A DNA stretch of 64,000 bases from positions 26,739 to 90,738 of the forward strand of contig JAXHVO010000103.1 in NCBI GenBank assembly GCA_034189135.1, written 5' to 3'. This document shows positions 23,249 through 25,692 of this stretch, piece after piece. The notes below the pieces were generated by a model that was given only the letters and a program-made list of their open reading frames with translations, searched no databases and was not told where the DNA came from. How positions within the stretch are numbered: position 1 is the first letter of the stretch; every line of letters begins with the position of its first letter. The position numbers were made by a program, and so were the translations under genes. This DNA comes from Thermodesulfobacteriota bacterium. GTDB taxonomy: Bacteria > Desulfobacterota > Desulfobacteria > Desulfobacterales > JAUWMJ01.

Positions 23249-23761
23249 ATGAATAAAAACACAGAGGAAGTACTACAAGGATTAAAAACAGCCATGGAGG
23301 CAGAGCTGACCGGCCATGAGTTTTACAAAAATGCCGCTCAAACCACCGCTGACCCAGTTGGGAAAGAGACCTTCTCCCGCATGGCCGAAGAGGAGATCGG
23401 CCACTTCAACTATCTGAGACATCAGTACAAATCCGTTCTGGAAAAAGGTGAGTATGACTTTACCAAAAAGCTGCTAAAAAAAGATCATCAACATGCGGAA
23501 AGTCCGATCTTCAGTGATGAGATAAAAAGAAGGATCAAGGACAGTCATTTTGAAGTCAGTGCACTGACCATTGGCATGAAATTGGAATTAGATGCCATGA
23601 GATTTTACCGGGCTTGTGCGGAAAAGGCTGACGATGAGGAGGTAAAAACGCTTTATAATGAATTGGCTGACTGGGAAACAGATCATTATCGCGCCTTTGA
23701 GCAGCAACTGAATATGCTGAAAGAAGACTACTTTCAGGCAAATAATTTTGTTCCCATGTAA
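23249..23761 (+). CDS. Rubrerythrin/ferritin-like diiron protein
   Basis: A four-helix ferritin-like protein of 170 aa with two ligand pairs: EAELTGHEFY plus EEEIGHFNYL in the first half, and LELDAMRFY plus DWETDHYRAF in the second. The rubredoxin domain of classical rubrerythrin is absent. Such proteins act in peroxide reduction or iron handling in the cytoplasm of anaerobes. ATG 23249 follows GGAAAG. It converges on hgcB, with 104 bp between the two stop codons. Confidence 0.85.
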   Translation: MNKNTEEVLQGLKTAMEAELTGHEFYKNAAQTTADPVGKETFSRMAEEEIGHFNYLRHQYKSVLEKGEYDFTKKLLKKDHQHAESPIFSDEIKRRIKDSHFEVSALTIGMKLELDAMRFYRACAEKADDEEVKTLYNELADWETDHYRAFEQQLNMLKEDYFQANNFVPM

Positions 23762-23865: not shown

Positions 23866-24165
23866 TTAGCAACAACCACCTGTTTCAGCAGAACCACAGC
23901 TAGCATTTTCTTTGCCTTTTATCCAGACCTGGATAATATAGGAGGCTCAACCTACACCAGGACTGACTTCTATTGCATGGGTAGGACAGTTATTCACACA
24001 TGCCCCGCACTCCATGCAGGCGTTAAAGTCGATAATTGCCGCTTTTCCCTGCCTGATCTCAAAAACATGGTGGGGGCATACTTCGGTACACAAACCACAC
24101 CCGATGCATTCCTCCCGGTTGAGTATCAGTGACGAAACATCGTCTAGGTATCTTATATCTTCCAT
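23866..24165 (-). CDS. hgcB: HgcB, ferredoxin-like partner of HgcA, with in-frame TGA read as selenocysteine
   Basis: HgcB carries electrons to HgcA in mercury methylation. From ATG 24165 the frame gives CIGCGLCTEVC (C20-C30) and CMECGACVNNC (C50-C60), two [4Fe-4S] motifs including the ECGAC of HgcB. TGA at 23949-23947 is codon 73. The frame then runs ASYIIQVW to GGCC and TAA, 99 codons in all, ending in the vicinal cysteine pair expected of HgcB. In studied HgcB (P. mercurii ND132, from memory) position 73 is an essential cysteine. A perfect hairpin with GGUC loop follows the TGA. I infer selenocysteine. A nonsense mutation or sequencing error is the alternative. It lies 22 bp after hgcA. 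Confidence 0.88.
23914..23949 (-). promoter_or_regulatory. Candidate bacterial SECIS element after the hgcB TGA
   Basis: Read on the minus strand, the TGA is followed by a 17-nt stretch and then loop GGTC. The stem TTATCCA/TGGATAA is perfect, 7 bp. GCCT directly after TGA can also pair with AGGC at the far end, closing a longer stem with an internal loop. The apical part CCAGGTCTGG resembles the E. coli fdhF SECIS (GCAGGUCUGC), whose loop lies about 18 nt from the UGA. The distance and a G at the start of the loop fit SelB recognition. Confidence 0.75.
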
Positions 24166-24187: not shown

Positions 24188-25396
24188 TTAAAATGCCGAA
24201 TAGATCCAGAAACCTGTTGATATTACCAAAGCGATTAACTGTACAGGGATGAACCTTTTCATCTCCTTTTCAACACCGGAGGGTGAGGTAAAGGGGGTGG
24301 CGCCGGTAAAATTCATGGACAGATAGGAGCTTATGGCCATCACCAATAAAAACAGACCGATAAAGGCCGTAATCCCATGAATGGACGATGAAATTGACAG
24401 AAATAAAAGCGCGGCAAACACAATTCCGCATAGGAGACCTTTTGCGGCAAACTCTCTAAATGGGATATAGGGCAGCAGTGCGGGGGTAATGACTGCACCG
24501 GAAATAATTCCCACCAAAAGCGCCAGGATAGACACCATTCCCCTTTCAAAAGCACTTGAAAAGGAAAAGAAGCCCGGCCCGAAACCGGACAGAATAATCA
24601 AAACCATTGAGGCTAGCAAAGCCGGCTTGAGGACCGTTTTCAATTCAACCGGGGTGAGAATCAGCCTTTCAATAAAAGTGAAGGTAACCATTCTCATCTT
24701 TTTATCGGCCTTTCTATTGTTTTTAACAAAAGCGGGAATGTCTTTTGCCCTGACAGGGCCGAATACCACTTTAAAGCCGGATTCTTTTTTTACCTTTCCG
24801 GCAGTCACTCCGGTTGCACCCAGTTGTGGAACGATCACCCGTTTATGGTCAACCACTTTTTCCAGGGAACATCGTTTTATTCTTTTAACCAGTTCTCCAG
24901 TGGAAAAGGTTCCTTTTCCGGCAGCACACCAGACATTTACCCCGCCGGTATCCAGAACAAGAATCCAGGCATCCATATACTCCAGCTCCCGCCTCAGGTG
25001 ATCAAAGGTCAGTTTGAAATTTGCGGTAACCAGGACCTCTGAAGCTTTGTCAGGGTTTCCCACACAATAAAGACCGGGTGCCACTTTGTAATTGTGCCTG
25101 CCAATACCGCTTCTTACCACCAGGGTGGATAGAATATCACTTTTATCCGGTTTGGTTTTTACCTTGGGAACAAAACCGGTATCGGTGAAAACAAAATCTT
25201 CCACAAACGAGCCAATGATATACCCCGGCTTTTCATGATCGGCAAAAACATTCTTTGGTCCAATGCCGCCATCGGTCCCTGCATCATCCATTTCTGGCAT
25301 GATTGAAACCCCGGTGGATTCAAGCCTAGTGTCACAGCCCTCGTTGCTGCTGCAATCAGACCCACAGCCACATCCGGTATCTAATGGTTCTTTCAA
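24188..25396 (-). CDS. hgcA: HgcA, corrinoid mercury methyltransferase
   Basis: Membrane corrinoid protein that transfers a methyl group to Hg(II). The cap-helix motif NVWCAAGK is exact, with Cys157 as the expected lower cobalt ligand. A CFeSP-like globular domain (residues about 60-230) is followed by five TM segments (for example LLASMVLIILSGFG and FIGLFLLVMAISSYLSM). The 402-aa length exceeds many HgcA proteins because of an N-terminal extension rich in cysteine (GCGCGSDCSSNEGC). The start is TTG 25396, with AGGGAG well placed. arsR lies 14 bp upstream and hgcB 22 bp downstream. Confidence 0.96.
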   Translation of the reverse strand: MKEPLDTGCGCGSDCSSNEGCDTRLESTGVSIMPEMDDAGTDGGIGPKNVFADHEKPGYIIGSFVEDFVFTDTGFVPKVKTKPDKSDILSTLVVRSGIGRHNYKVAPGLYCVGNPDKASEVLVTANFKLTFDHLRRELEYMDAWILVLDTGGVNVWCAAGKGTFSTGELVKRIKRCSLEKVVDHKRVIVPQLGATGVTAGKVKKESGFKVVFGPVRAKDIPAFVKNNRKADKKMRMVTFTFIERLILTPVELKTVLKPALLASMVLIILSGFGPGFFSFSSAFERGMVSILALLVGIISGAVITPALLPYIPFREFAAKGLLCGIVFAALLFLSISSSIHGITAFIGLFLLVMAISSYLSMNFTGATPFTSPSGVEKEMKRFIPVQLIALVISTGFWIYSAF

Positions 25397-25410: not shown

Positions 25411-25692
25411 TTATAATTTCGACACATACTTTTTGAATTGATTCAATACATCAAAATCGACACAGTAACACGTTTTTGGTCCTTCAATTTCACCATGGAC
25501 AATACCTGATTCTTTAAGCAGCTTAAGGTGTTGGCTGATGGTCGACTGGGAAAAGGGGAAAATATTCACAATTTCTCCACATACACAAGAATTGATTTTT
25601 ATTAAATGCTCCACAATCTTAACCCTGGTGGGATGTCCCAGCGCCTTGAAAATTTTGGCGAGTGTATCTGCATCCATTTTAAGTTTCGGCAT
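25411..25692 (-). CDS. ArsR/SmtB-family repressor heading the hgcAB operon
   Basis: Winged-helix DNA-binding protein, 93 aa. The recognition helix is in FSQSTISQHLKLLKESGIV. The N-terminal half reads KALGHPTRVKIVEHL, and NSCVCGEIV puts a CxC pair in the metal or arsenic sensing position; TCYC near the end could also bind metal. It is the first gene of arsR-hgcA-hgcB, 14 bp before hgcA. ArsR-type regulation of hgcAB is known in other methylators, so metal- or arsenic-dependent derepression of hgcAB is inferred. Confidence 0.92.
   Translation of the reverse strand: MPKLKMDADTLAKIFKALGHPTRVKIVEHLIKINSCVCGEIVNIFPFSQSTISQHLKLLKESGIVHGEIEGPKTCYCVDFDVLNQFKKYVSKL

What the first reader, a model, noticed from the sequence alone, without database searches (positions are those of the whole stretch)
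23866..24165. HgcB with selenocysteine in place of the essential Cys73
The mercury-methylation ferredoxin HgcB reads as 72 codons ending at TGA. The frame then continues for 26 codons to the expected Cys-Cys end (GGCC). The TGA is codon 73, the position of the strictly conserved cysteine that is essential in studied HgcB (from memory of ND132 mutagenesis). A SECIS-like hairpin follows. I know of no description of HgcB as a selenoprotein. A selenolate at the Hg-handling site could bind Hg(II) far more strongly or alter its transfer to HgcA.
Basis: partly seen in the sequence, partly recalled or inferred. Interest (0 to 1): 0.95.

Follow-up and report, generated by a model that had tools for sequence, protein, structure and literature searches.

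The report
Selenocysteine form of mercury-methylation protein HgcB
The gene for the mercury-methylation protein HgcB has a UGA codon exactly where its relatives have an essential cysteine, and it is predicted to be read as selenocysteine; dozens of related bacterial genomes share this, and HgcB is already listed in print as a likely selenoprotein, so it is real but not new.

Summary
On the minus strand, hgcB runs from ATG at 24165 to TAA at 23868-23866, with UGA as codon 73 (23949-23947). Read through, it is a 99-residue HgcB (NF040864, 124 bits, cut-off 99) directly downstream of hgcA and arsR. A 7-bp hairpin with loop GGUC, 17 nt after the UGA, meets the published bacterial SECIS model. The genome has selA, selD, two selB and two selC (anticodon TCA).

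Comparison makes recoding close to certain at gene level. A pattern leaving the third base of codon 73 free found 64 places in 62 of 389 genomes of the class; all 64 read TGA. In 60 distinct Sec-type genes the hairpin's three isoleucine codons are ATT, ATC, ATA in 60 of 60, against 0 of 39 Cys-type genes. pN/pS after the UGA is 0.09, against 0.95 after the true stop. On an HgcA tree 57 of 58 Sec rows form one clade.

A 2026 review lists HgcB (NF040864, motif GVGU) as a selenoprotein, citing Haft and Gwadz 2023; a 2024 PNAS paper says the same of some homologues. Whether selenium is present, and what it does to mercury chemistry, is untested. One relative carries the Sec tail on a Cys-type backbone, a lead only.

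The parts
23866..24165 (-). hgcB, 99 codons plus TAA, read through UGA codon 73
   Evidence: NF040864 124.4 bits over a cut-off of 99, profile 1-93 of 93
23947..23949 (-). UGA codon 73, predicted selenocysteine, at the column of conserved Cys73
23914..23946 (-). predicted bacterial SECIS: upper 7-bp stem 23936-23919 with loop GGUC at 23929-23926, plus a weaker lower stem (GCCU/AGGC in this gene)
   Evidence: model constraints from PMC13188914 section 5
23869..23946 (-). 26-codon tail after the UGA, ending Cys-Cys
24188..25396 (-). hgcA, 402 aa, probable TTG start, cap-helix motif NVWCAAGKG; no in-frame UGA
   Evidence: NF040863 430.1 bits over a cut-off of 275
25411..25692 (-). ArsR/SmtB-family regulator directly upstream of hgcA
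   Evidence: NF033788 72.6 bits over a cut-off of 55

Best explanation
The gene has an in-frame UGA at codon 73 of hgcB followed by a conserved hairpin, and is predicted to make a 99-residue HgcB selenoprotein in which selenocysteine replaces the cysteine that other HgcBs carry there. Shown: UGA, hairpin, hgcA next door, the four kinds of Sec gene in the genome, and the same UGA with hairpin in 62 of 389 genomes of the class. Inferred: the hairpin recruits SelB with Sec-tRNA so that UGA is decoded as Sec; the 72-residue product is termination leakage or an annotation artefact. Inferred from work on Cys-type HgcB: residue 73 would be the acceptor that takes methylmercury (or Hg(II)) from the C-terminal Cys-Cys pair before release, and a selenolate, being a softer and stronger mercury ligand (general chemistry, recalled), would make that hand-over tighter or faster in exchange. 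The change was most likely made once, in the ancestor of a Desulfobacteraceae-centred clade of hgcAB.
For: UGA at residue 73 and whole-length family match. Codon 73 was TGA in 95 loci, TGC in 70, TGT in 33; the 95 are 60 distinct genes. Class survey: 150 hits listed, 57 flagged with a TGA, all 57 read, 56 at codon 73; the two flagged TAA have it only at their ends. Pattern search: 64 of 64 TGA. Ile codons ATT, ATC, ATA in 60 of 60 Sec genes; in 0 of the 39 (of 95 distinct) Cys genes with Ile at the three sites. Residue +7 is Val or Gly in 60 of 60 Sec genes, keeping G in the loop; in Cys loci mostly Thr, Gly, Ser. pN/pS 0.22 before the UGA, 0.09 after it, 0.95 after the true stop; 56 of 60 tails end CC. 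Folding z against synonymous shuffles: -1.92 for 41 Sec rows, -0.29 for 66 Cys rows. selA, selD, selB x2, selC x2. Cys73 essential: C73A abolished methylation, stated in PMC7305189 (passages).
Against: No selenium or peptide evidence. The Sec genes are nearly one clade, so the 60 of 60 counts are not 60 independent events. The upper stem is invariant, so covariation cannot test it; the lower stem pairs in only 83% of cells and has one pair with changes on both sides, a number the column shuffles reach in 500 of 500. 11 of 60 Sec genes miss a constraint of the SECIS model as I coded it, 9 of them on fold energy alone. tRNA-Sec over the cut-off is in 48 of 55 Sec-type genomes but also in 46 of 55 Cys-type ones, so its presence does not discriminate; 7 Sec-type genomes lacked a hit. 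The protein search found one 95-residue relative (P0003) with Leu at 73 and a Sec-type tail.
Confidence: 0.95

Rival explanations
1. UGA is a true stop: the protein is a 72-residue dicluster ferredoxin and the tail is dead sequence.
For: Gene callers treat it so: 19 of the 120 listed database relatives are exactly 72 residues long.
Against: The tail is under strong purifying selection and keeps Cys-Cys in 56 of 60 genes. Of the 150 listed class hits, 56 have UGA and none UAA or UAG at codon 73, all flagged stops having been read. It would delete a residue that is essential in the studied HgcB.
Confidence: 0.02
2. Sequencing or assembly error or pseudogene: the real codon is TGC or TGT.
For: The genome is a draft in 140 contigs; raw reads were not available.
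Against: The same TGA in 60 distinct genes from many assemblies, with hairpin codons that Cys genes lack.
Confidence: 0.005
3. UGA is read as an ordinary amino acid (reassigned code, or suppression giving Trp or Cys) rather than as Sec.
For: Read-through alone does not identify the residue.
Against: 41 of 60 of these genes end with TGA as their own true stop; the Sec genes are present; the hairpin sits where the bacterial SECIS model requires it.
Confidence: 0.02

Closest known systems
HgcB selenoprotein, NF040864, motif GVGU (Haft and Gwadz 2023, J Bacteriol 205:e00259-22; listed in review PMC13188914)
   Same: Same family, same motif GVG-U, Sec at the column of the conserved Cys.
   Different: No difference found. 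The primary paper is not held, so its members and hairpin could not be compared.
Cys-type HgcB (studied in strain ND132)
   Same: Two CxxCxxCxxxCP motifs, GVG at 70-72, C-terminal Cys pair, partner HgcA with its cap-helix Cys (ND132 itself was not aligned, three HgcBs titled Pseudodesulfovibrio were).
   Different: UGA instead of a Cys codon at 73; hairpin with fixed Ile codons; Val where Cys loci mostly have Thr, Gly or Ser at +7.
HgcA selenoprotein, NF040863, motif CU (PMC13188914)
   Same: A Sec site in the same two-gene system.
   Different: The window's HgcA has no in-frame UGA. In the aligned part of HgcA an in-frame UGA near the N-terminus was seen in 6 of 151 loci, all six with Cys-type HgcB.

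Membership tests
HgcB (NF040864) | Score over the curated cut-off along the whole profile | tested here: met
   124.4 bits, cut-off 99, profile 1-93 of 93, with U given as C
HgcB (NF040864) | Two CxxCxxCxxxCP motifs for [4Fe-4S] clusters | tested here: met
   C20xxC23xxC26xxxC30P and C50xxC53xxC56xxxC60P read
HgcB (NF040864) | Encoded next to hgcA | tested here: met
   hgcA 25396-24188, NF040863 430.1 bits
HgcB (NF040864) | Conserved Cys at residue 73 | tested here: not met
   UGA, predicted Sec, in that column. The published list already gives U here for this family, so membership stands
HgcB (NF040864) | C-terminal cysteines | tested here: met
   Ends GGCC; 56 of 60 Sec-type genes end CC
Bacterial selenoprotein | In-frame UGA aligned with Cys of homologues | tested here: met
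Bacterial selenoprotein | SECIS hairpin: 3-9 nt loop, 4-16 bp upper stem, G in the first two loop positions, loop 16-37 nt after UGA, MFE -7.5 kcal/mol or lower | tested here: met
   Window: 4-nt loop GGUC, 7 bp, 17 nt, -9.8 kcal/mol; 49 of 60 Sec-type genes meet all as coded
Bacterial selenoprotein | selA, selB, selC, selD in the genome | tested here: met
Bacterial selenoprotein | Selenium in the protein | not testable with these tools
   needs mass spectrometry or 75Se labelling
Mercury methylator | Hg(II) methylation by the organism | not testable with these tools
   needs culture or enzyme assay

The most novel reading that the evidence does not exclude
The UGA with its SECIS forms a compact 3'-end cassette of hgcB that arose once and can move on its own: in G133 (L167) the HgcA and the first 72 HgcB residues sit with Cys-type relatives, while the 48 nt after the UGA are 94% identical to a Sec-type gene (59% before it). 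Recombination would have turned a cysteine HgcB into a selenium HgcB in one step, which would mean that selenium at the mercury site can be gained by exchange and kept.
Probability: 0.25. Interest if true: 0.6.

Novelty: already known. Interest (0 to 1): 0.35.

Why it matters
HgcB is needed for methylmercury formation, and residue 73 is essential in the studied protein. A whole clade that would use selenium there offers a natural comparison of sulfur and selenium at the mercury-handling site, and would link mercury methylation to selenium supply. Practically, databases hold such HgcBs cut at residue 72, so surveys lose the essential residue and tail. Whether the 2023 paper already has these could not be checked.

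Tried and rejected
True stop, sequencing error and code reassignment were considered and rejected. tRNA-Sec presence as a discriminating test gave nothing: 48 of 55 Sec-type against 46 of 55 Cys-type genomes. Covariation gave little because the upper stem never varies. A Rfam scan of the window at the gathering threshold found only a tRNA. A plasmid search found no relative covering 80% of HgcB. A PDB search with HgcA found only corrinoid/iron-sulfur proteins of the CO dehydrogenase kind; HgcB was not searched there. The HgcB-only tree has too few columns to resolve most forks; it too needs 2 changes of the Sec label, of which its starred branches force 1. A first HgcA scan returned nothing, probably for a bad program option, and was repeated. 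A second G131 match is a truncated copy of the hgcB 3' end. Literature searches for prior art; outline, passages or a section seen in PMC13188914 and passages in PMC11588087, PMC7305189, PMC10418091 and PMC12013277, none whole.

Full report
The observation. The feature lies on the minus strand. hgcB starts at ATG 24165, meets UGA as codon 73 (23949-23947), runs on for 26 codons to ...GSAETGGCC and stops at TAA 23868-23866. Read with the UGA as a residue, the 99-aa product matches NCBIfam NF040864, mercury methylation ferredoxin HgcB, at 124.4 bits (cut-off 99) over profile positions 1-93 of 93. hgcA lies 22 nt upstream (NF040863, 430.1 bits) and an ArsR-family regulator before it. The window lies in a genome of 4.63 Mb in 140 contigs, 95.5% complete. 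Its nearest HgcB relatives among named records are titled Desulfobacula, Desulfobacteraceae, Deltaproteobacteria and the like.

The site. In an alignment of 14 Sec-type and Cys-type HgcBs the UGA occupies the column of the conserved Cys after GVG, residue 73 in the window and also in three Cys-type HgcBs titled Pseudodesulfovibrio. For ND132 HgcB, C73A abolished methylation, and at least one of Cys94 and Cys95 is needed for full activity (PMC7305189, passages; see also PMC11588087, passages).

Relatives. Codon 73 was read in 198 loci: TGA 95, TGC 70, TGT 33; one locus (L128) could not be assigned. The 95 TGA loci are 60 distinct genes. I read all 57: 56 have it at codon 73, one (G146) only as its ordinary stop. 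Two listed hits flagged TAA (G321, G374) have Cys at 73 and TAA only at their ends. By my count of the list, the 48 hits of tool family f12 are all of the TGA kind; the other eight TGA hits lie in seven genomes of families f1, f13, f26, f30, f55 and f58. In the phylum survey of 395 genomes, 115 were over the cut-off; besides the window's own, 5 hits were flagged TGA, all outside the order, and none has it at codon 73; one flagged TAG (G555) has Cys at 73. A pattern built from Sec-type genes, with the third base of codon 73 left free and up to 2 mismatches allowed, found 64 places in 62 of 389 genomes; all 64 read TGA, and the reversed control pattern found none. I read 62 of the 64 as HgcB with the UGA after GVG; one (G361) starts at a contig edge in the right frame, and one (the second of G131) is a truncated copy. 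With up to 3 mismatches in the 395 genomes of the phylum draw, only the window's own genome had a TGA match; three weaker matches read TGC or TGT.

The hairpin. UUAUCCA-GGUC-UGGAUAA has its loop 17 nt after the UGA. The window's 45-mer folds at -9.8 kcal/mol. It meets the published bacterial SECIS constraints (PMC13188914 section 5). Of 60 distinct genes 49 meet all constraints as I coded them; 9 fail on energy only (-6.3 to -7.4) and 2 on the outermost stem pair. The seven upper-stem pairs are identical in 50 of 50 distinct 45-mers, so covariation is silent there; the lower stem is only 83% paired and weakly supported. The better test is synonymous: the stem covers three Ile codons, which are ATT, ATC and ATA in 60 of 60 Sec genes and in none of the 39 Cys genes (of 95 distinct) that have Ile at these three sites, while before the UGA the Sec genes use all three Ile codons (ATT 75, ATC 57, ATA 42). 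Protein constraint does not explain that. The Sec genes are related, so the counts are not independent, but their synonymous difference elsewhere is large (pS 0.72 before the UGA, uncorrected). The residue facing the loop is Val (58) or Gly (2) in Sec genes, which keeps a G in the loop; in the 103 Cys loci it is Thr 30, Gly 28, Ser 25, Glu 8, Val 6, Ala 3, Arg 2, Lys 1 (counted by position). Fold energies are lower than synonymous shuffles in Sec rows (mean z -1.92, n 41) but hardly in Cys rows (-0.29, n 66, made before the later loci were fetched).

Selection after the UGA. pN/pS over pairs of the 60 distinct Sec genes is 0.22 before the UGA, 0.09 in the 16 codons after it, 0.12 after it outside the hairpin core, and 0.95 after the true stop. 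Tails end CC in 56 of 60. The true stop is itself TGA in 41 of 60, so UGA is not generally reassigned.

Machinery. The genome has selA (603.9 bits), two selB (374.6 and 303.5), selD (378.9, itself with one in-frame TGA) and two tRNA-Sec genes, both with anticodon TCA. tRNA-Sec is over the cut-off in 48 of 55 Sec-type genomes, 25 of 27 of the good ones; but also in 46 of 55 genomes whose listed HgcB has no TGA at codon 73, 28 of 31 of the good ones (55 of 93 such genomes of the list were given). It is necessary but not diagnostic. Of the seven Sec-type genomes without a hit, four are under 90% complete (G359, G377, G145, G121) and three are not (G039, G265, G302).

History. On a tree of 147 HgcA proteins, which do not hold the trait itself, 57 of 58 Sec rows form one clade (SH-aLRT 100); the label needs 2 changes against 45.8 in shuffles. 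The exception, L167 from G133, has HgcA and HgcB 1-72 nearest to Cys-type rows (75% protein identity to L090), but its 48 nt after the UGA are 94% identical to L095, against 59% before it. A caution: any two Sec genes are more alike after the UGA (0.82-0.85 on average) than before it (0.64-0.68), because the hairpin is fixed, so the contrast alone is not proof; L167 is only slightly closer to Sec than to Cys rows before the UGA (0.61 against 0.59). It is either recombination of a Sec tail onto a Cys backbone, a second origin, or a chimeric assembly; one case cannot decide, and no clade test was run.

Mechanism. Shown: the codon, the hairpin, the selection and the Sec genes. Inferred: SelB-dependent insertion of Sec. 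Inferred from the model of Cys-type HgcAB in PMC7305189 (passages): residue 73 receives methylmercury from the tail cysteines before release; a selenolate there would bind mercury more strongly. No call tests this. Some HgcAs instead have an in-frame UGA near the N-terminus (6 of 151, all with Cys-type HgcB, which saw only the aligned part of HgcA), so selenium may enter the system at different points in different lineages.

Prior art. PMC13188914 (outline, passages and one section seen) lists HgcB, NF040864, motif GVGU, and HgcA, NF040863, motif CU, as selenoproteins; [quoted passage not shown] The 2023 paper itself is not held. The window's gene is a further member of that published kind.

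Verdict. A real selenocysteine HgcB at gene level, already known as a kind.

Noticed in passing
G000:C62:115833-117874 (L002, L010, L257): A second tRNA-Sec gene (TCA, 53 bits) sits directly before a second selB (304 bits), followed by ORFs that look, by eye, like a 2-hydroxyacyl-CoA dehydratase subunit and its activator. Two tRNA-Sec hits also occur in some relatives. Which SelB serves hgcB is unknown.
   Followed up: partly
L167:1782-1826 (G133:C6): HgcB with a Cys-type backbone and a Sec-type tail: mosaic, second origin or chimeric assembly.
   Followed up: partly
L118, L125, L129, L031, L159, L148: In-frame TGA near the N-terminus of HgcA, five times directly after Cys (fits the published CU motif), in all six with Cys-type HgcB.
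   Followed up: partly
L086 and L169 (G302:C158): A second in-frame TGA in the tail of a Sec-type HgcB (ENASC-TGA-DSGCC), at a Gly position of relatives: early stop, base error or second Sec.
   Followed up: no
L174 (G644:C363): Cys73-type HgcB whose tail has TGA (GAPPD-TGA-SDGCGDGPSSPSSCC) beside the cysteine-rich stretch of relatives.
   Followed up: no
L259 (G321:C11): Cys73-type HgcB with Val at +7 and a tail that ends at TAA before its Cys pair (KAACG-TAA-GGC).
   Followed up: no
L255 (G131:C1:4038795-4038829): A truncated second copy of the hgcB 3' end, with UGA and hairpin (one mismatch), about 7 kb from the intact gene.
   Followed up: yes
P0003: A 95-residue HgcB with Leu at position 73 and a Sec-type tail, a single database sequence.
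   Followed up: no
window 23249-23761 (+): Rubrerythrin/ferritin-like protein gene convergent with hgcB (PF02915).
   Followed up: no
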